Source of the DNA: Thermomicrobiaceae bacterium | GTDB lineage: Bacteria > Chloroflexota > Chloroflexia > Thermomicrobiales > Thermomicrobiaceae | Assembly: GCA_014874455.1 (NCBI GenBank) | Contig: JADBJL010000024.1 | Span: 1 to 36,149 of the forward strand | Direction of reading: 5' to 3' | DNA length: 36,149 nucleotides | The notes under the pieces: generated by a model | What the model saw: only the letters and a program-made list of their open reading frames with translations | Database searches by the model: none | Told to the model about the DNA's origin: nothing | Program-made: the position numbers and the translations under genes | Part shown: positions 5,480-33,694 of the stretch, in pieces | How positions within the stretch are numbered: the stretch's first letter is position 1 | How the letters are laid out: every line of letters begins with the position of its first letter

Positions 5480-6457
5480 GTGGCTGAGACGATCTCCCGC
5501 TGGCCCGCGGGGCGGGTGGTGACGCTCGCCGGGGGAGTCGGCGGCGCGAAGCTGGCGCATGGGCTGGCGCTGGCCGGCCTGGACGACCGCCTGGACGTGG
5601 TCGTCAATACCGCCGACGACTTCCAGCTCTATGGCCTGCACATCTCGCCGGATCTGGACACGGTGATGTACACCCTGGCCGGCATCGCGAACCCGGCCAC
5701 CGGCTGGGGAATCCTCGGCGATACCGCCGCGACCCTGGGCATGATCGGTCGCTATGGCCGCTCCACCTGGTTCTGGCTGGGTGACCGGGATCTCGCGACG
5801 CATCTCCTGCGCACCGAGCGGCTGCGCGCTGGCGCCCGGCTGACCGAGGTGACCGCCGAGCTAGCCGCCGCGCTGGGAGTCACCGCCCGTATTCTCCCGA
5901 TGTGCGACGAGCCGGTGGCTACCCTGATCGAGACCCCGGCCGGACGGCTGGAGTTCCAGGACTACTTCGTGCGGCGGCGACAGCGCGATACCGTGCTCGC
6001 GGTCAGGTTCGAGGGTATCGAGCAGGCGCGCATCACGCCCGAAGTCGAGCGCGCCCTGGCGGAGGCGAGCGTCGTCGTCGTCGGCCCGTCGAACCCGCTG
6101 GTCAGTATCGGCCCGATCCTGGCAGTGCCGGGGTTCCGCGAGCGGCTCCGGGCGTTCCACGGGCCGGTGGTGGCCGTGAGCCCAATCGTCGCTGGCCAGG
6201 CGCTCAAAGGGCCGGCCGACCGGATGCTAGCCTCGCTCGGCCATGAGGTCTCGCCGCTCGGGGTGGCGCGGCTGTACCAGGACTTCCTGGATGGTATCCT
6301 GATCGATCAACTGGACGCTGAGCTGGCGCCGGCCATCGCCGAACTCGGAATCGTGGTGAAAGTCGCCGACACGATCATGCGTACCAACGACGACCGCCGG
6401 CGGGTTGCCCGGGCCGTGCTCGACCTCGCCCGCGAGCTGATGGGAGCGGCACCCTAA
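5480..6457 (+). CDS. cofD: CofD/FbiA, 2-phospholactate or PEP transferase of F420 synthesis
   Basis: A 325-residue protein of the CofD family, which transfers a phospholactyl or, in bacteria, phosphoenolpyruvyl moiety from its GDP-linked form to the deazaflavin Fo, giving (dehydro-)F420-0. Visible family motifs: GGVGGAKL (18-25), NTADD (43-47), SPDLDT (56-61), GWGILGD, a [12 protein letters not shown] block near residue 200 and [15 protein letters not shown] near 240. The length is normal. The GTG at 5480 is supported by AAAGGGTGAG 6-8 bases upstream. The stop overlaps the cofC start by one base (TAATG), so the two are translationally coupled. Fo synthase (cofG/cofH) and the ligase cofE are not in the window. 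Confidence 0.96.
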
Positions 6458-7113
6458 TGACCGCGCTTGCGCTCGTGCCGGTGCAAATGCTCTCGCAGGC
6501 CAAGAGCCGGCTGGCGGCGCGGCTCGGCCCGGAGGCTCGCGAGGAGCTGATGTGCCGGTTGGTCGAGCGCCTGCTGCGCGAACTGCAGGCGGCTCGGCGA
6601 ATCGGCCGTATCCTGGTCGTATCGCCTGACCCCGCAGTCCTGGCACTGGCTGAGCGAGCCGGTGCCCGGGGCGTGCTGCAGGCAGGCACCGGGCTGAACG
6701 CCGCGGTCGAGCTCGGCCAGCGCTCTGCGGTCGCCGAGGGGTGGGCTCGGCTGGTCGTGGTGCTGGCCGACCTGCCCCTGCTGGCGGCAGAGCAGGTCGA
6801 CCGGATGCTGGCGCTGGGGCGCGAGGGCAGCGTCGTCATCGCGCCCGACCGGCACGGGCTGGGGACGAACCTGCTCGCGCTATGGCCGCCGGACGCGGTC
6901 GAGCCAGCCTTCGGCACGGCGAGCCGGGAGCGGCATGCGCGGGCGGGGCGGGTGAGCGGGCTGCGCGTGCTGGAGTACTGGTCGGTCGGTACCACCGTCG
7001 ACCTGGACACGCCGGAGGATCTCGATGAACTGCTCGAGCGCTGGGGTTGGAGGCCCGATTGGTGGCTCACCGGGAAGGGGGTGACCGGATGGCGGAGCGG
7101 AACAGCCGGGTGA
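6457..7113 (+). CDS. cofC: CofC/FbiD, phospholactate or PEP guanylyltransferase
   Basis: A 218-residue nucleotidyltransferase that makes the GDP-activated substrate for CofD. Family features: N-terminal ALVPVQMLSQAKSRLA with the conserved AKSRL, VVVLADLPLL around residue 105, DRHGLGTNLLAL, FGTASRERHARA, and a C-terminal VDLDTPEDLDELL. The ATG overlaps the cofD stop by one base. The last 25 bases overlap the start of the EamA transporter gene. Bacterial orthologues (FbiD) use phosphoenolpyruvate rather than 2-phospholactate; the neighbouring FbiB-C-like reductase suggests the same here, though this is inference. Confidence 0.93.
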   Translation: MTALALVPVQMLSQAKSRLAARLGPEAREELMCRLVERLLRELQAARRIGRILVVSPDPAVLALAERAGARGVLQAGTGLNAAVELGQRSAVAEGWARLVVVLADLPLLAAEQVDRMLALGREGSVVIAPDRHGLGTNLLALWPPDAVEPAFGTASRERHARAGRVSGLRVLEYWSVGTTVDLDTPEDLDELLERWGWRPDWWLTGKGVTGWRSGTAG

Positions 7114-8039
7114 CGAGCTGGGGCGTGCTGGTCGTAGCGCTGGGCGCGTCCCTGTGGGCGGTCGACGCGCCGATCCGCAAGCCGTTGACCGAGCTGCTGC
7201 CGGCAACGTCGATCGTGCTGGCGGAGCATCTGTTTCTGGCGCTGTACTCGCTGCCGATGGTCGTCGTCGCGCGGCGGGTCTTCTCGCAGCTCGGTGCAAG
7301 CGGCTGGCTGGCGCTCGTCGTGATCGCCTGGGGCGGTTCGGGGCTGGCGACGGTACTCTTCACCCAGGCGTTCAAGATCGGCAACCCGACGACCGTCATC
7401 TTGCTGCAGAAGCTCCAGCCGTTGATCGCGGTGCTGCTCGCCGGGATGATCCTCAAAGAGCGGCTGCCGCGACTCTACTGGCCCTGCTTCGCTGTCGCCC
7501 TGGTGGGCGCCTATCTGGTGTCGTTCGGCCGCCAGTCGCTCGAGCCGATCTGGCGGCTGCCGCAAGACCGGGTGCTGACCGCCGTGTTCGCGGTCGGCGC
7601 AGCGATGCTCTGGGGCGGCTCGACGGTCTTCGGCCGCTACCTGCTCCACGGGGTGAGTTTCCCGACCCTGGCTGCCGCGCGCTTCCTGCTGGCGCTGCCG
7701 TTCCTCGTCGGTCTGGCCGCCGTCCAGGGCGCGCTGGGAACGACGTTCCAGGTGGGGATGGCCCAGGAGCCGGTGCGGCTCTTCATCCTGGCGCTGATCC
7801 CTGGCCTGGCTGCCATGCTGGTCTACTACCTCGGCCTGAGCCGAACCCGGGCCTCCTACGCCACCCTCGCCGAGTTGAGCTTCCCAGCCATGGCGGTGGT
7901 CGTAAACTGGTTCGCGCTGGGCGCCCGCGTCGATGCAGTACAGGTGCTGGGCTTCGTGGTGCTCTGGTCGGCCATCACCGCGCTGACCTGGATCCCGTCG
8001 CCGCGGCCGGCCGCCGAGGCGCAGCCGGTGACCACCTAG
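7089..8039 (+). CDS. EamA/DMT-family transporter inside the F420 operon
   Basis: A 316-residue membrane protein with about ten hydrophobic helices in two EamA repeats, the usual length and architecture of drug/metabolite transporters. Pro-rich pore-side motifs such as LQKLQPLIAVLLAGMILKE at the end of the first repeat match the family. The ATG at 7089 is preferred over an upstream frame opening because AAGGGGGTGA lies just before it; it therefore starts inside cofC. It is followed 10 bases later by the nitroreductase gene, so it sits in the middle of the F420 cluster. Its substrate is unknown. A link to F420 or a precursor is suggested only by position. Confidence 0.9.
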   Translation: MAERNSRVTSWGVLVVALGASLWAVDAPIRKPLTELLPATSIVLAEHLFLALYSLPMVVVARRVFSQLGASGWLALVVIAWGGSGLATVLFTQAFKIGNPTTVILLQKLQPLIAVLLAGMILKERLPRLYWPCFAVALVGAYLVSFGRQSLEPIWRLPQDRVLTAVFAVGAAMLWGGSTVFGRYLLHGVSFPTLAAARFLLALPFLVGLAAVQGALGTTFQVGMAQEPVRLFILALIPGLAAMLVYYLGLSRTRASYATLAELSFPAMAVVVNWFALGARVDAVQVLGFVVLWSAITALTWIPSPRPAAEAQPVTT

Positions 8040-8049
8040 GGACGAGACG

Positions 8050-8697
8050 ATGGAAGCGTGTCCGTCCGCACTCCTCATACCCGGCGAGCGCAGGCTCGAC
8101 CTGCCGGAACTGATCCGCGGCCGGCGCTCGGTTCGCCGGATGCGCCCTGATCCTGTCCCGCGCGAGGCGATCGAGGCGGTCATCGAGGCGGCGGCCTGGG
8201 CACCCTCGCCGCACGGGGCGCAGCCCTGGCGCTTCGTCGTCCTGACGAACCCGGAGCGCAAGCGCGAGCTGGCCGACGCGATGGCGGAGACCTGGGAGCG
8301 ACAGCTCGCGCTCGACGGACAAGACGCAGACACGATCGCCAAGCGGCTGGCCGGCTCCCAGCGGCGCCTGCTGGAGGCGCCGGCCCTGATCCTGGTCTGC
8401 CTCTACCTGGTCGACCTCGACCGCTACCCCGATCCCGAGCGCCAGGCCGCCGAGACGACGATGGCGATCCAGAGCCTAGGTGCGGCCGTGCAGAACCTGC
8501 TGCTGATGGCGTACCGGCTGGGACTGGACACCGGGTGGATGTGCGCGCCGCTCTTCTGCCCGGAGGTGGTGCGGGAGACGCTCGGGCTGTCCCCCGACCT
8601 GATCCCGCACGCGCTGATCACGCTGGGCTACGCCGCGGCCGATCCGAACCGCCGGCCGCGTCGCCCGCTCGGCGAGTTGATCGCCCGCTGGGACTGA
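8050..8697 (+). CDS. Stand-alone nitroreductase, FbiB C-terminal-like (dehydro-F420-0 reductase candidate)
   Basis: A 215-residue FMN-dependent nitroreductase-superfamily protein. The RRSVRRM segment (about 25-31) and APSPHGAQPWRFVVL (about 51-65) form the FMN site typical of the group resembling the C-terminal domain of actinobacterial FbiB. That domain reduces dehydro-F420-0 to F420-0 after PEP has been incorporated. In Actinobacteria it is fused to the glutamyl ligase; here it is free-standing. I recall stand-alone enzymes of this kind being described for Thermomicrobia. It is the last gene of the cofD-cofC-EamA run, 10 bases downstream of the transporter. Other nitroreductase activities cannot be ruled out from sequence alone. 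Confidence 0.88.
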   Translation: MEACPSALLIPGERRLDLPELIRGRRSVRRMRPDPVPREAIEAVIEAAAWAPSPHGAQPWRFVVLTNPERKRELADAMAETWERQLALDGQDADTIAKRLAGSQRRLLEAPALILVCLYLVDLDRYPDPERQAAETTMAIQSLGAAVQNLLLMAYRLGLDTGWMCAPLFCPEVVRETLGLSPDLIPHALITLGYAAADPNRRPRRPLGELIARWD

Positions 8698-14001: not shown

Positions 14002-14520
14002 TCAACAGCCGGCCTGGGCGAACTCGGGCGCGTAGCGCACCAGCCCTTCCACCCCGTGTAGCGCGCCCGGCTGCAACTCCAGCGCCATGAAAGCGTCGCC
14101 CGCCCCGTACTCGTTGCTCAGCCGATAGGTGCTCGCCGGCACGAAGCCGAACCGCCGGTAATACCGCGGATCGCCGAGCAGCACCACGAAGCCGTAGCCG
14201 CTCTCCCGGCAGGTTTCCAGCCCCTCGCGTATCAGCCGGGAGCCGATGCCTCGCCGCTGGTACGCGGGTAGGACACCGATCGGCCCGAGCGCGAGCGCCC
14301 GTCTTGGCATGGCGGGCGCAGGGACGATCGTGACCGGCGAGAACGCCACATGGCCGACGATCAGCCCGTCGGACACCGCGACCAGCGAGAAGGCCATCCT
14401 GCCCGCCCGGCGGAGCAGTTCCACCAGATGCGCCTCGTTAGGGCTCGGGTAGAACGCCTGCTGGTGAACTGTCCGGATGGCAGCGCTCTCCTCTGGCCGC
14501 TCGGCACGGATCTCGGTCAT
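14002..14520 (-). CDS. GNAT-family N-acetyltransferase
   Basis: A 172-residue GNAT acetyltransferase. The acetyl-CoA-binding core is LGPIGVLPAYQRRGIGSRLI with the Q-R-R-G-I-G pyrophosphate loop (about 79-98), followed by GFVVLLGDPRYYRRFGFVPA, as in YhbS-type enzymes. The length fits a single-domain member. The substrate is unknown. The ATG at 14520 has GGAGGG about 10 bases upstream. The gene is divergent from the thiamine-diphosphate enzyme with a 193-bp spacer that carries the latter's promoter. Confidence 0.9.
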   Translation of the reverse strand: MTEIRAERPEESAAIRTVHQQAFYPSPNEAHLVELLRRAGRMAFSLVAVSDGLIVGHVAFSPVTIVPAPAMPRRALALGPIGVLPAYQRRGIGSRLIREGLETCRESGYGFVVLLGDPRYYRRFGFVPASTYRLSNEYGAGDAFMALELQPGALHGVEGLVRYAPEFAQAGC

Positions 14521-16532: not shown

Positions 16533-18038
16533 TCATTCTGCTTTCAGCGGATCCAACTGATCCGCAGTCGGCTCCGCTCAGCAGAACCACGATTCGGTGA
16601 GGCGTGGTGGCGGGGGACGATGCCTGCGTCGCGGCGGATCTGCCGGAGGCTCGATTCCGGCAGCCGCGCAGGCGAGCGCTCGCACGGCGGCGAAGGTTGC
16701 GTAGTTGTCCCAGCCTTCGCGCGTCGCCCGCTCGACCAGAGCTGCCACCTCACGCTGCAGGCGATCGACGCGTGGGTCGGGATGCGTCCAGGTATAGGTG
16801 AAGGCAGCCTCGTCGAGCGGGCCGACCCACTCGGCTGCGTCCGGCCGGTCGAGCAGCGCCGAGCCTGGCGGCACCAGCAGGCGGATCGAGAGGTGTACTG
16901 GGTCGACGTGCTCGATCAACCCCTGTTCCTCGATGAAGTCGAGCAGCTCCAGGTAGTCCTCGAGCGTCGTCCACGGCGTGAACGGGAGCAGCGAGGGGCG
17001 CAAGGCGATGCCGGCCTCGTCCAGCACGCGCAGCGCCTCGACGACATCGGCCTTGCGGTGGCCCTTGTCGATCTTCTCCAGCACCAGGTCGCTCGCCGAT
17101 TCGACCGCCGAGACGACGAAGACGCACCCCAGGCGCCGGAACTCGGGGAAGAGCTCGCGGTGGCGCAGGATGTGCTCGATCCGGGTGGTGAAGTCGAAGG
17201 TGACGTGCGGGAACTCCTCGTGCAGCGCCTGGCAGACGCGCAGGCTATGCGTGGGGCCGTTGAGGAAGTCGGGGTCGCCGAAGGTGATGTGGCGCACCCC
17301 CTGCCGCACCTGCCGGCGGATATCGGCCAGCACGACCTGGCGCGGGATGGCGAAGAAGCGCCCGCGGTAGACGGGCACGATCGGGCAGTGCAGGCAGGTG
17401 TGGTGGCAGCCGCGGGTCGTCTCGGTGTAGCCGGCCGGCACGGCGCGGCCGTCCATGACCAGGTGGGCGTAGTGCCGCGGCGGCGGCAGATCGGAGCGGT
17501 CAGGCTCCGGGAAGTCGATCCGGGCGAGCGACGGGCCGGCCCGGTAGGCGCGGTCACTGACGCCGGGTACCGGGCCTGGTTCGCCGCGTTCCAGCGCCTG
17601 GATCAGGGCGAGCAGCGGCGCCTCGTACTCGCCGCCGATGACGAAGTCGGCCCACTCGCGGAGCAGGTACTCGGCGTTGAGCCAGGCGTAGAGGCCGTAG
17701 AAGCAGAGCAGCGCGCCCGGGTTCCGGCGCCGGATGCGCGCGGCCAGCTCGATGCCGAGCCGGAGCGCGGTATGCATCGGAACCGAGATGGCGACCAGCC
17801 GCGCGGCCGCAATGGTCGCGTCGTCCGGCGGGGCGACGGCCGCGTCCACGGCGACCGGCCGGTAGCCGGCACGGCGCAGGTAGGCCAGCGGGAAGGCGAG
17901 GTTGAGCGGCTGGTGGCCCAGCTCGTAGCAGGAGAGCAGCAGGATCGCCCCAGGCGCTTTCAGGTCGAGCGGCATCGGCTGAAGCCGAGCGACCGGCTGG
18001 CTGGCAGCGTCTCTGGTTGTCGTCGACAGCGAGGCCAT
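16533..18038 (-). CDS. Radical SAM selenoprotein with Cys-Sec-Ala-Glu-Pro tail (B12-binding-type N-domain)
   Basis: A 501-residue protein if the TGA at plus-strand 16578-16580 is read as selenocysteine. The N-terminal half (about 30-150) resembles a cobalamin-binding-type Rossmann domain. The radical SAM domain carries Cys211, Cys215 and Cys218 (CHHTCLHC) for the 4Fe-4S cluster. Before the TGA the frame reads TESWFC; after it, AEPTADQLDPLKAE and then a TGA stop at 16533-16535. Cys486-Sec487-Ala-Glu-Pro matches the tail for which a family is named (CUAEP/CCAEP-tail radical SAM (seleno)protein, from memory). A SECIS-like stem-loop encloses the TGA. Ending at 16578 would give a product lacking the motif. 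ATG 18038 has GAGGAG 8 bases upstream; an earlier start at 18104 looks non-coding. The reaction is unknown. It lies 72 bases after gamma-glutamyltransferase on the same strand. Confidence 0.87.
16536..16586 (-). promoter_or_regulatory. Candidate bacterial SECIS element
   Basis: In the mRNA (minus strand) UUCUGCU (16586-16580, including the U of the UGA) pairs perfectly with AGCAGAA (16542-16536). Inside it GCGGAUC (16565-16559) pairs perfectly with GAUCCGC (16553-16547) around the loop AGUUG (16558-16554). The loop starts 19 bases after the UGA, within the spacing known for bacterial SECIS, and has a G in its first two positions. An alternative long stem is possible (AGCGGA with UCCGCU, CCGACU with AGUUGG). 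Both put the UGA at the base of a hairpin. This is drawn by eye and not energy-computed. Confidence 0.7.
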
Positions 18039-18110
18039 GCCCGGACTCCTCGACGATGAGCGCCGTCGGCACCTAAGGGTAACAGCCGGGGAAGGCAGAC
18101 CCAAGGGGCG

Positions 18111-30418: not shown

Positions 30419-30877
30419 GTGCTGGCGGAACCGGAGATCATCGCGCGGATCCAGGAGCGCGGGCTGCGGGTCACCCGGCCGCGCCGGCAGATCGTCCGGG
30501 CTGTGCTTTCTCAGACCGGGCCGTTCTCGGCCGAGGAGCTGCTAGTCCGGCTGCACGGGAACGGCATCGCAGCCGGGCGGGCGACGGTCTTTCGCACGCT
30601 CGACCTCCTCGTCGAACTCGGCGTGCTCGACCGCGTCCATCATCCTTCCGGGCTGCACCGCTACGTGCTCGCGGGGCTCGACCATGGCCACTATGTCGTC
30701 TGCTCGCGTTGCGGCGCGGTGGCAGACTTCAATGGCTGCAACGTCGATGACCTGATCGCCGCAGTGGTCGCTCAGACCGGCTTCCGGATCGACGGTCACT
30801 GGCTAGAACTCTTCGGCCTCTGCGCGGTCTGCCAGAACGATACCGCTGCCAACTGCTCGGCGGCCGCTGCCGGTTGA
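30419..30877 (+). CDS. Fur-family metalloregulator, probable Zur
   Basis: A 152-residue Fur-family repressor. A winged helix (about 1-80, with RATVFRTLDLLVELGVLDRV as recognition region) is followed by a dimerisation domain. Two CxxC pairs, Cys95/Cys98 and Cys135/Cys138, form the structural zinc site; His89 and His91 (DHGHYVV) belong to the sensory site. The znuA-znuC-znuB genes lie immediately downstream on the same strand, so zinc sensing (Zur) is the likeliest role, though Fur or Mur function cannot be excluded. The GTG at 30419 has GGAGGG 9 bases upstream. An overlapping ATG at 30412 is in another frame and does not encode the regulator. Confidence 0.88.
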   Translation: MLAEPEIIARIQERGLRVTRPRRQIVRAVLSQTGPFSAEELLVRLHGNGIAAGRATVFRTLDLLVELGVLDRVHHPSGLHRYVLAGLDHGHYVVCSRCGAVADFNGCNVDDLIAAVVAQTGFRIDGHWLELFGLCAVCQNDTAANCSAAAAG

Positions 30878-30995
30878 GTGTCACGCTTTCGAGAGCGCCG
30901 GCAGCCGGGGATCTCCGCTCCGAGTTTGCTCAAGGCGTTACCGCTCTAACGTCAGTGTCGTGTTCAGCCCGTGCCGGATGATCGTGTGCTCGGCC

Positions 30996-31032
30996 TTGCA
31001 GCGAGTTACTGAGACACGGTATCGTTTACTCG
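30996..31032 (+). promoter_or_regulatory. Promoter and possible operator of the zinc-uptake operon
   Basis: TTGCAG (30996-31001), 18 bp, TATCGT (31020-31025). An imperfect inverted repeat, CGAGTTAC (31002-31009) against GTTTACTCG (31024-31032), covers the spacer and -10 box, where a repressor such as Zur would block RNA polymerase. It is read by eye; no consensus for this group is known to me. Confidence 0.4.
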
Positions 31033-31083
31033 GCTGCGCTGGGAGCGCAGAAGAGCCGAAGACTGGTCGGGGCGAGGCGGGCG

Positions 31084-32040
31084 ATGGCACAGGGAGAGCG
31101 ATGGCTGGAACAGGTGCGGCGAGCCGTGTTACTGGCGCTCGTCGCCGTGGTGCTGCTCGTCGCCTGCAACAGGACTGCGGCTCCCCCGCCGCCAGAGGCC
31201 AGCCCGGCGACCACACCAGCAGCCGCCAAACAGGTTCGCGTCGTCGTCAGCCTGCCGGTCTTCGTCTCCCTCGTCGAGGCGGTCGGCGCCGACCGCGTGC
31301 GGGTGAGCTCGCTCGTACCCGCTGGCACTGATCCTCACACCTACCAGCCGACGCCCCGCGATGCCCAGGCGCTCGCCGAAGCCGACATCGTCTTCGTCAA
31401 TGGGCTGGGGCTGGAGGGCTGGCTCGGCAACCTGATCGCCTCGGCCGGCCCCTCGGCGCGCGTGGTCGAGCTGGCCGAGGGACTCCAGACCATCCAGGAC
31501 GAGCAGGGCACGCCTGAGCACGCCCACGAGGCTGGCAACCCCCACCTCTGGCTCGATCCCGACTACGCCATCGAGTATGTGCGTCGCATCGCCCAGGCAC
31601 TGGGGGAGATCGACCCTGGCGGCGCGGCGACCTACCAGACGAACGCCGAGCGCTACATCGCCGAGATCCACGCCTTCGACGCCTGGGCGAAGGAGCAGGT
31701 GCAGCGGATCCCGCCTGAACGCCGCAAGCTTGTCACCTTCCACGATGCCTTCCCCTACTTCGCCGAGCACTACGGGCTGGAGCTGGTCGGGGTAATCGTC
31801 CTCAGCCCGGGCCGGGAGCCCTCACCGCAGGAGCTGGCCCAACTGGTCGATCTCATCCGTCAGCAGGGCGTGCCGGCCATCTTCACGGAACCGCAGTTCA
31901 ACCCCAAGCTGGCGGAGACCCTGGCGCGCGAGGCGGGCGTCAAGGTATTGGAGCTGTACAGCGATACCCCGCCGGCCGGCGAGGACTACATCGGTATGAT
32001 GCGGCGCAACGTGGAGCACGTCGTCGAAGGGCTAGCCTAG
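31084..32040 (+). CDS. znuA: Zinc-binding lipoprotein of an ABC importer (ZnuA-like)
   Basis: A 318-residue cluster A-I metal-binding protein. The signal ends in a lipobox LVAC with Cys28, so it is membrane-anchored outside the cell. Metal ligands by family alignment are His85 (DPHTYQP), His154 (NPHLWLD), His220 (TFHDAF) and Asp294 (ELYSDTP). A His at the third position, rather than Glu, is typical of zinc rather than manganese proteins. Only a short His-bearing loop (EHAHEAG, about 145-151) replaces the long His-rich loop of E. coli ZnuA. GAGG lies 6-9 bases before the ATG. The stop directly abuts the znuC start. Confidence 0.92.
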   Translation: MAQGERWLEQVRRAVLLALVAVVLLVACNRTAAPPPPEASPATTPAAAKQVRVVVSLPVFVSLVEAVGADRVRVSSLVPAGTDPHTYQPTPRDAQALAEADIVFVNGLGLEGWLGNLIASAGPSARVVELAEGLQTIQDEQGTPEHAHEAGNPHLWLDPDYAIEYVRRIAQALGEIDPGGAATYQTNAERYIAEIHAFDAWAKEQVQRIPPERRKLVTFHDAFPYFAEHYGLELVGVIVLSPGREPSPQELAQLVDLIRQQGVPAIFTEPQFNPKLAETLAREAGVKVLELYSDTPPAGEDYIGMMRRNVEHVVEGLA

Positions 32041-32859
32041 ATGCAGGTGCAAACGGAACTTCAGCCTTCAGCGGTGACGACCGGTGAGCCGGTCATCGTG
32101 GTGGATCGCTTGACGACCGGCTACTACCGCGAGCCGGTGCTTCAGGAGATCAGTTTCGCGGTACCGCGCGGCGCGCTGGTGGGCGTGATCGGGCCCAACG
32201 GCGGGGGCAAGTCGACCCTGTTCCGGGTCATCGTCGGGTTGCTCAAACCCTGGCAGGGCCGCGTGCTCGTCGGGGGCCGATCCGCGCGTCCCAGCCCTGA
32301 CATCGCCTACATCCCGCAGATCCACGCGGTGGATTGGGCTTTCCCGGTGACCGTGTGGGACGTGGTGATGATGGGCCGGTACCCCCGGTTGGGGCTCCTG
32401 CGCCGGCCAGGCGCGCGGGATCGCGAGCTGGCCGAGTGGGCGCTCGAACGGGTGCGCATGCACGATTTCCAGGCGAAACCGATCGGCGCGCTCTCCGGCG
32501 GCCAGCGGCAGCGGGTGTTCCTGGCCCGTGCGCTGGCCCAGGAGCCGAGCATCCTCCTCTTCGACGAGCCGGTCAGTGGCGTCGATGCGCCGACACAGCA
32601 TTTCATCTTCGAGCTGCTGGAGCAGCTCTGCGCCGAGGGGCGCACGGCGCTGGTAGCCTCGCACGACCTGAGCTGCGTCGCGCAGCGCTTCAGCCAGGTG
32701 CTTCTGCTCAACCGGCGGATGTTCGGGTTCGGCCCACCCGAGCGCGTCTTCACTGAGGAGCTGCTCAACCAGACCTTTGATACACATCTACTGCTCCTGC
32801 GCTACGGTGACCGGGTGATCGTAGTCGAGAGTCCGGAGGACGGTACGAGTGCTTGTTGA
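32041..32859 (+). CDS. znuC: Zinc ABC importer ATP-binding protein (ZnuC-like)
   Basis: A 272-residue ABC ATPase. Walker A is GPNGGGKST (51-59), the Q-loop lies in IAYIPQ, the signature is LSGGQRQR, Walker B is ILLFDEP, and the H-loop is ASHD. It powers metal import with ZnuB. Its start codon follows the znuA stop with no gap, and its end overlaps znuB by 11 bases, so the three are one operon. Metal specificity is taken from the ZnuA ligands and the neighbouring Fur-family gene. Confidence 0.94.
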
Positions 32860-33694
32860 TCTCCTGCTCGAACCGCTACGCTACGGGTTCCTGCTGCGTG
32901 GGCTGGCTGCCGCGGTGCTGATCGGAATCATCTGCGCGGTGATCGGAACGTATGTCGTGCTCAAGGGTTTCGCCTTCATCGGCGACGCCCTGGCCCATAT
33001 CGCCTTCACCGGCATCGTCGTCGCCTTCCTGGCCGGCTTCGTCTTCTACCTGGGAGCGCTGGTGGCAGCGGTGGCGGCCGGCCTGGGGATCGGCCTGATC
33101 CAGCGTCGGGTCGGCCTGCGTACCGATACCGCCATCGGCATCCTCTTCAGCGGCATCTTCGCCTTCGGCATCGTGCTGATGAGCGTGGGCATCAAGACCT
33201 ACACGGTCGACCTCTTCAGTTATGTCTTCGGCGATATCCTCTCGGTGCGGCCGCGCGATCTGCTGGTGATCCTGGGGCTGGGCGGGCTTGTCCTGCTGCT
33301 CATCGGGCTGCTCTACAAGGAGCTGCTGTTCGTCAGCTTCGACCCGGTGGCCGCTGAGGCCAACGGCCTGCCGGGAGGCGCGCTCCAGCTTCTCCTCTTG
33401 ACGCTGCTCTCGATCACCGTCGTGGCGTCGGTGCAGGCCGTCGGCGTCGTGCTGGTGGTCGCCATGCTGGTGACGCCGAGCGCCACCGCGTACTTGCTGA
33501 CCGACCGGTTCCACCGGATGATGCTGCTCGGAGCCGGGCTCGGCGCTCTCTCGGCGCTGGTCGGCTTTTACCTGAGCTATTACCTGAACGTGCCTTCCGG
33601 TGGCACGATCGTGCTGGTGGCCAGCGCGCTTTTCGCGCTGGTGGCGCTGCTGTCACCCCGGCGCGCCCAGCTTCGACTGCTGGTTCGTGGATGA
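32849..33694 (+). CDS. znuB: Zinc ABC importer permease (ZnuB-like)
   Basis: A 281-residue integral membrane protein of the ABC-3 family with about eight hydrophobic helices. Typical segments are VIGTYVVLKGFAFIGDALAH, TDTAIGILFSGIFAFGIVL and SVQAVGVVLVVAMLVTPSA. It forms the metal channel with ZnuC. The GTG at 32849 lies inside the end of znuC, with GGAGGA 8 bases upstream. The length is normal. Confidence 0.94.
   Translation: MLVDLLLEPLRYGFLLRGLAAAVLIGIICAVIGTYVVLKGFAFIGDALAHIAFTGIVVAFLAGFVFYLGALVAAVAAGLGIGLIQRRVGLRTDTAIGILFSGIFAFGIVLMSVGIKTYTVDLFSYVFGDILSVRPRDLLVILGLGGLVLLLIGLLYKELLFVSFDPVAAEANGLPGGALQLLLLTLLSITVVASVQAVGVVLVVAMLVTPSATAYLLTDRFHRMMLLGAGLGALSALVGFYLSYYLNVPSGGTIVLVASALFALVALLSPRRAQLRLLVRG

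What the first reader, a model, noticed from the sequence alone, without database searches (positions are those of the whole stretch)
16533..18038. Unannotated selenoprotein: radical SAM enzyme with Cys-Sec-Ala-Glu-Pro tail
Seen: the radical SAM frame ends TESWFC-TGA, and the frame after the TGA reads AEPTADQLDPLKAE and then stops. Cys-TGA-Ala-Glu-Pro is exactly the tail for which a radical SAM (seleno)protein family is named (CUAEP/CCAEP, from memory). Chance agreement of four specified residues around a TGA in the right family is very unlikely. Ordinary annotation would drop the last 15 residues, including the likely active tail.
Basis: partly seen in the sequence, partly recalled or inferred. 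Interest (0 to 1): 0.92.

Follow-up and report, generated by a model that had tools for sequence, protein, structure and literature searches.

The report
Selenocysteine-tailed radical SAM enzyme
The gene encodes a radical enzyme whose end is almost certainly read through a UGA 'stop' as selenocysteine; it belongs to a family that databases already name but whose function is unknown, and here it is tied to an ATP-grasp amino-acid ligase, a formyltransferase-like protein and an iron-handling protein that suggest a shared pathway.

Summary
The minus-strand radical SAM frame (18038 to 16533) reads ...TESWFC-TGA-AEPTADQLDPLKAE-stop. It is a full-length member of NCBIfam NF040546, 'CUAEP/CCAEP-tail radical SAM (seleno)protein' (776 bits, cut-off 500). 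All 171 homologous loci read have TGA, TGC or TGT at this position, and AEP follows in all 169 extracted automatically. A hairpin at fixed register after the TGA is 86% paired in 88 TGA genes, with many compensatory changes, against 40% in 41 Cys genes: a SECIS element. The genome carries selA, selB, tRNA-Sec(UCA) and a SelD with its own in-frame TGA. Sec decoding is therefore well supported but not shown experimentally.

So this is a new member of a known, computationally defined family. What I did not find described: 97 of 99 Chloroflexota genomes with this enzyme also have an ATP-grasp amino-acid ligase, often adjacent and linked to YggX (Fe-S protection) and a formyltransferase-like gene. 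The window's genome has that trio on another contig. Its nearest relative, ArsL (arsinothricin biosynthesis), ends in RCCLKC and often sits near ATP-grasp genes. I infer a biosynthetic module in which the Cys-Sec tail handles a soft atom or reduces the active site; the chemistry is inference.

The parts
16533..18038 (-). CUAEP-tail radical SAM selenoprotein, 501 residues with Sec at position 487
   Evidence: translation with TGA=Sec; NF040546 776 bits over profile 1-467/468
16578..16580 (-). in-frame TGA, Sec codon (residue 487), next to Cys486
   Evidence: sequence; aligned with TGA/TGC/TGT in all homologues
16547..16565 (-). SECIS hairpin GCGGATC-AGTTG-GATCCGC, bases +13 to +31 after the TGA
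   Evidence: covariation in 88 TGA homologues versus 41 Cys homologues; -10.7 kcal/mol on its own; a longer stretch has a competing fold
16536..16577 (-). conserved tail AEPTADQLDPLKAE after the Sec codon
17385..17408 (-). radical SAM [4Fe-4S] motif C211-x3-C215-x2-C218 (CHHTCLHC)
   Evidence: invariant in 58 homologues; PF04055 E=3.3e-14
18046..18051 (-). Shine-Dalgarno-like GAGGAG ahead of ATG 18038
   Evidence: sequence

Best explanation
The gene encodes a radical SAM enzyme of the NF040546 family whose UGA codon 487 is decoded as selenocysteine, giving a C-terminal Cys-Sec-Ala-Glu-Pro tail. An mRNA hairpin starting 13 bases after the UGA (SECIS) recruits SelB with Sec-tRNA(Sec); all required genes are in the genome. 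The family moves between Sec and Cys at this site. The enzyme is one part of a conserved module with an ATP-grasp L-amino-acid ligase, commonly also a YggX Fe-S-protection protein and a formyltransferase-like protein. Shown by sequence comparison: family membership, conserved tail, SECIS, Sec machinery, co-occurrence. Inferred: that the radical enzyme makes or modifies a small amine or amino acid which the ligase then condenses, and that the Cys-Sec pair binds a soft-atom substrate or reduces the active site. The inferred chemistry is not covered by the confidence given; I put an ArsL-like reaction at about 0.3.
For: NF040546 at 776 bits, cut-off 500. Cys/Sec exchange in all homologues, and AEP invariant. 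Fixed-register hairpin: 85.7% of cells paired in 88 distinct TGA genes against 40.4% in 41 Cys genes; 3'-letter shuffles give 71% (max 75%), same-protein synonymous recoding 66% (max 69.5%), slides of 1-3 bases at most 57%. The isolated 19-mer averages -9.7 kcal/mol in TGA genes and -2.8 in Cys genes, p=4e-16, relatedness not corrected. In L046 the frame stops two codons after AEP, yet five pairs of the hairpin at the same register persist beyond the stop. selB, tRNA-Sec, selD (itself with TGA) and selA are present. At least 9 Sec/Cys changes are forced on the tree. The ligase is in 97 of 99 genomes with the enzyme and in 34 of 301 without; in GTDB family f3 the two match genome by genome, 9 both and 14 neither. 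Adjacency in several phyla. In the window's genome ligase, YggX and formyltransferase-like genes lie together on contig C58. ArsL-family genes in three of four plasmids examined also have an ATP-grasp gene nearby.
Against: No protein-level evidence of Sec. A longer RNA stretch folds into a competing hairpin and its stability is not exceptional (z=-1.36). Several Ktedonobacteria TGA genes have only partial stems. Cys forms occur in genomes that keep selB, so Sec versus Cys does not track the machinery. In the window the enzyme itself is not beside the ligase. The co-occurrence count is not corrected for phylogeny, and the ligase occurs without the enzyme in 34 genomes. No arsenic gene family appears among the tallied neighbours.
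Confidence: 0.88

Rival explanations
1. The TGA is an ordinary stop: the protein ends ...TESWFC and the AEP reading after it is residual or chance.
For: Standard gene calling stops there, and the RefSeq CDS of the T. roseum homologue ends at the TGA.
Against: AEP is conserved beyond the position in all homologues, including Cys forms that translate straight through it. The SECIS is present with TGA and absent with Cys. Full Sec machinery.
Confidence: 0.04
2. Function: the Cys-Sec tail is a redox relay, like the C-terminal GCUG of mammalian thioredoxin reductase (from memory). It swings to the active site to reduce a disulfide, an oxidised substrate or a cluster, and takes electrons from a thioredoxin-type donor.
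For: Adjacent Cys-Sec near a C-terminus is the thioredoxin-reductase arrangement (established knowledge). Interchange of Sec and Cys at least 9 times fits a catalytic chalcogen whose rate, not its existence, depends on Se. Neighbouring YggX and NfuA point to Fe-S and oxidative-stress handling.
Against: No thioredoxin reductase or thioredoxin gene was among the top neighbours. The nearest family, ArsL, has a Cys-rich tail in an arsenic-handling enzyme.
Confidence: 0.3
3. Function: ArsL-like. The Cys-Sec tail holds a soft heteroatom (As, Se, Sb, a metal or persulfide sulfur), and radical cleavage of SAM transfers a carbon fragment, such as the 3-amino-3-carboxypropyl group, to it. The ATP-grasp ligase and the formyltransferase-like protein then elaborate the amino acid formed.
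For: ArsL (NF040542) is by far the next-best family, 318 bits against 52 for the third. Both end in a vicinal-Cys tail that aligns. ArsL is proposed to transfer the ACP group to As(III) (PMC8552651). ATP-grasp genes accompany RCCLKC-tail genes on three of the four plasmids examined. In two related genomes the ligase-YggX-formyltransferase trio lies near ORFs whose starts I read as SAM synthetase and adenosylhomocysteinase (by eye, not scanned).
Against: No ars genes tallied next to the CUAEP enzymes. The ATP-grasp proteins of the two systems are only distantly related, 23-25%. Broad, partly vertical distribution looks more like core metabolism than antibiotic production.
Confidence: 0.3
4. Function: the C-terminal Cys-Sec pair ligates an auxiliary metal site or cluster.
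For: The fold model resembles MiaB, RimO and other cluster-bearing radical SAM enzymes as well as cobalamin-type ones.
Against: Only two adjacent soft ligands are conserved at the tail, apart from invariant His residues elsewhere; no second Cys motif. Coordinates of the model were not available, so distances were not measured.
Confidence: 0.15

Closest known systems
NCBIfam NF040546, CUAEP/CCAEP-tail radical SAM (seleno)protein
   Same: Full-length match at 776 bits over a 500-bit cut-off; CxxxCxxC motif; C-U-A-E-P tail; RefSeq names the T. roseum homologue so.
   Different: Nothing in sequence: it is a member. The SECIS covariation and the ligase/YggX/formyltransferase association are findings made here; no held paper mentions the family.
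ArsL, arsinothricin biosynthesis radical SAM (NCBIfam NF040542, RCCLKC tail)
   Same: Nearest other family (318 bits); 33-38% identity over residues 32-431; vicinal Cys at the C-terminus; ATP-grasp gene nearby in three of four loci examined.
   Different: Below the 450-bit cut-off; RCCLKC instead of CUAEP; no ~50-residue stretch before the tail; lies with arsM, arsN1 and arsR, which were not seen near CUAEP genes.
AprD4, OxsB, MgmA, TsrM (solved radical SAM structures with a cobalamin-type N-terminal fold)
   Same: Same overall fold in the model (Z 25-27).
   Different: 13-21% identity; B12-binding domain below Pfam's cut-off (24.6 against 32.1 bits) and I see no DxHxxG motif in the sequence; none is known to me to have a Cys-Sec tail.
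TIGR04167 and TrsS (NF045646) radical SAM selenoproteins
   Same: Other bacterial radical SAM selenoproteins listed in a 2026 inventory (PMC13188914).
   Different: Different families and Sec contexts (GxxU for TIGR04167); neither was among the NCBIfam matches of this protein. NF040546 is not found in that paper's text.

Membership tests
NF040546 CUAEP/CCAEP-tail radical SAM (seleno)protein | score above the curated cut-off (500 bits) over the full profile | tested here: met
   776 bits, profile 1-467 of 468
NF040546 CUAEP/CCAEP-tail radical SAM (seleno)protein | C-terminal C-(U/C)-A-E-P motif | tested here: met
NF040546 CUAEP/CCAEP-tail radical SAM (seleno)protein | radical SAM CxxxCxxC cluster motif | tested here: met
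   C211, C215, C218 invariant; PF04055 above cut-off
Bacterial selenoprotein | SECIS stem-loop immediately 3' of the UGA | tested here: met
   comparative test; definition from PMC9312934
Bacterial selenoprotein | selA, selB, selC (tRNA-Sec), selD in the genome | tested here: met
Bacterial selenoprotein | homologues with Cys at the UGA position | tested here: met
   TGC/TGT in 41 distinct sequences
Bacterial selenoprotein | selenium present in the protein | not testable with these tools
   needs 75Se labelling or mass spectrometry
ArsL (NF040542) | score above 450 bits and RCCLKC tail | tested here: not met
   318.3 bits; tail is CUAEP
B12-binding radical SAM enzymes | B12-binding domain PF02310 above gathering score | tested here: not met
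   24.6 bits against 32.1; the fold of that domain is still present in the model

The most novel reading that the evidence does not exclude
The CUAEP enzymes are the radical step of an undescribed, widespread pathway (Chloroflexota, Nitrospirota, Rokubacteria, Acidobacteriota and others) in which a Cys-Sec tail presents a soft atom (metalloid, selenium or metal) to a SAM-derived radical, forming an organoelement amino acid that an ATP-grasp ligase and a formyltransferase-like enzyme build into a small peptide-like product.
Probability: 0.2. Interest if true: 0.8.

Novelty: new member of a known kind. Interest (0 to 1): 0.42.

Why it matters
It fixes a truncated gene model and adds comparative RNA evidence that the whole family is decoded as Sec. 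More usefully, it ties a named but functionless selenoprotein family to a specific ligase, a formyltransferase-like protein and an Fe-S-protection protein across phyla, and to ArsL, a characterised relative. That turns 'unknown selenoprotein' into a testable pathway.

Tried and rejected
Thermodynamic folding alone was uninformative (z=-1.36, with a competing hairpin); comparative pairing settled it. Rfam has no match in the window. The idea that Cys forms mark genomes without Sec machinery failed: selB is over cut-off in 75 of 80 homologue genomes, many with Cys forms; of the five without, three have Cys forms and two TGA forms in fragmented assemblies. The window's own neighbours (TPP enzyme, gamma-glutamyltransferase, aminotransferase) are not conserved beyond relatives, so no function was drawn from them. 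The GNAT at 14002-14520 is not ArsN1. No arsenic genes among tallied neighbours. Paper searches for CUAEP, CCAEP and NF040546 found nothing; the Haft papers that might describe the family are not held. The PDB look listed no closer relative than AprD4 and OxsB, which does not exclude one. Genomes with the ligase but no CUAEP enzyme showed no CUAEP-like radical enzyme near the ligase; only two of 14 examined kept YggX and the formyltransferase beside it.

Full report
Observation. The minus-strand frame from ATG 18038 runs 486 codons to TGC TGA and continues AEPTADQLDPLKAE to a second TGA at 16535-16533. A GAGGAG box lies 7 bases ahead of the ATG.

Is it conserved? Homologues came from 400 Chloroflexota genomes, from a scan of GTDB representatives (spanning Chloroflexota/Thermomicrobiota, Rokubacteria, Nitrospirota, Planctomycetota, Gemmatimonadota, Acidobacteriota, Poribacteria, Methylomirabilota) and from further stretches. 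All 171 loci have TGA, TGC or TGT at the position within C-(U/C)-A-E-P. Strict automatic extraction kept 169; the other two contigs end just after the motif. On a tree built without the tail the Sec/Cys label changes 10 times, at least 9 forced by well-supported branches.

Is the TGA read as Sec? The genome (G000, 3.37 Mb, near-complete; nearest named relatives are Thermomicrobiaceae) has selB on C80, tRNA-Sec with anticodon UCA on C96, selD on C106 with its own in-frame TGA in the usual place (SCAG-U-AGKLGP), and selA on C97. Directly after the rSAM TGA, bases +13 to +31 read GCGGATC-AGTTG-GATCCGC. At that fixed register 88 distinct TGA homologues have 85.7% of cells paired, with exchanges such as A-T to G-C and C-G to T-A on both sides, and a loop mostly AGTTN. 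The 41 Cys homologues have 40.4%. Shuffling the 3' letters between sequences gives 71% (max 75%), recoding the same proteins with synonymous codons gives 66% (max 69.5%), and sliding the register gives at most 57%. So the pairing is not a by-product of the conserved peptide. In L046 the protein ends two codons after AEP, yet part of the hairpin (five pairs at the same register) persists past the stop codon. On its own the 19-mer folds at -9.7 kcal/mol on average in TGA genes and -2.8 in Cys genes. Single-sequence folding of a longer stretch is ambiguous. Not every gene fits: several Ktedonobacteria TGA genes have shortened stems. Relatedness among sequences is not corrected in these counts.

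Annotation. In RefSeq the Thermomicrobium roseum homologue is named for the family, but its CDS ends at the TGA, so the AEP tail is missing from the gene model. The family name does not occur in any held paper, and NF040546 is not found in the text of a 2026 inventory of prokaryotic selenoproteins. Papers not held may describe it.

Structure. AlphaFold2 with 58 sequences gives mean pLDDT 93.9, about 81-86 over the tail region and 54 at the last residues. The closest solved folds are AprD4, OxsB, MgmA and TsrM (Z 25-27). The N-terminal domain has the B12-binding fold but scores below Pfam's cut-off. Coordinates could not be read, so the distance from the tail to the cluster is unknown.

Context. 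In the window the flanking genes are a TPP enzyme, a gamma-glutamyltransferase and an aminotransferase, and these associations are not conserved beyond relatives. Across loci three gene families recur: an ATP-grasp L-amino-acid ligase (ATP-grasp_4 plus LAL_C2), YggX (Fe(II) trafficking/oxidative damage protection) and a formyltransferase-like protein below the Fmt cut-off. Among 79 loci (some redundant) with at least 4 kb on both sides they lie within 4.5 kb in 35, 34 and 32 cases, in several different gene orders. The ligase is also adjacent in Rokubacteria, Nitrospirota, Acidobacteriota and Methylomirabilota. In the window's genome all three are together on contig C58. Of 400 Chloroflexota genomes, 97 of 99 with the radical enzyme have the ligase, against 34 of 301 without it. 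Within GTDB family f3 presence agrees genome by genome, 9 both and 14 neither. The overall test is not corrected for phylogeny.

Nearest relative. ArsL (NF040542) is the second-best family by a wide margin, 318 bits. It ends in RCCLKC, and its CC aligns with the C(U/C) of the tail (this end alignment crosses a long gap). ArsL is proposed to move the 3-amino-3-carboxypropyl group of SAM onto arsenite (PMC8552651). On three of the four RCCLKC-tail plasmid loci examined an ATP-grasp gene sits nearby, distantly related to the ligase here (23-25%).

Mechanism. Shown: family, tail, SECIS, machinery, co-occurrence. Inferred: a SAM radical enzyme acts on a small substrate, the Cys-Sec tail either holds a soft atom at the active site or supplies electrons to it, YggX protects the cluster, and the ligase and formyltransferase-like protein process the product. 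I put the soft-atom (ArsL-like) and redox-relay readings at about 0.3 each. Absence of ars genes nearby argues against arsenic as the usual substrate.

Verdict. The finding is right, and the protein is an ordinary member of an already named selenoprotein family. The added value is the comparative SECIS evidence and the conserved partner genes, which make the family's function testable.

Noticed in passing
window 5480-8697 +: Coenzyme F420 genes: cofD (5480-6457, TIGR01819), cofC (6457-7113, TIGR03552) and an FbiB C-terminal-like nitroreductase (8050-8697, below cut-off).
   Followed up: partly
window 30419-33694 +: A Fur-like ORF (by eye) followed by a metal ABC transporter: Mn/Zn-type substrate-binding protein and ATPase (below equivalog cut-offs) and a permease-like ORF.
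   Followed up: partly
L046, bases after the TGA codon at 2869: Frame stops two codons after CUAEP, yet part of the SECIS hairpin is kept beyond the stop codon; RNA structure kept without the peptide.
   Followed up: yes
L197 5956-7392 (NC_011961.1, Thermomicrobium roseum): RefSeq CDS named CUAEP/CCAEP-tail radical SAM protein ends at the Sec TGA, so the tail that names the family is missing from the gene model.
   Followed up: yes
A3 neighbour set (loci): DUF169 (PF02596, 6 of 87 neighbour ORFs) and NfuA (4 of 87) recur beside CUAEP enzymes.
   Followed up: no
L195 and L196: The ligase-YggX-formyltransferase trio lies near ORFs whose starts look like SAM synthetase (both) and adenosylhomocysteinase (L195, probably) in two related genomes (by eye).
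   Followed up: no
L063 and L070 (Thermomicrobium sp. CFH 73360): Apparently identical CUAEP genes on two scaffolds of one assembly; duplication or assembly redundancy.
   Followed up: no
L068, L069, L074, L075, L077 (Thermogemmatispora): Cys forms have a longer tail after CCAEP with further Cys pairs.
   Followed up: no
L202-L215: Chloroflexota genomes with the ATP-grasp ligase but without the CUAEP enzyme; the ligase mostly has another context there.
   Followed up: partly
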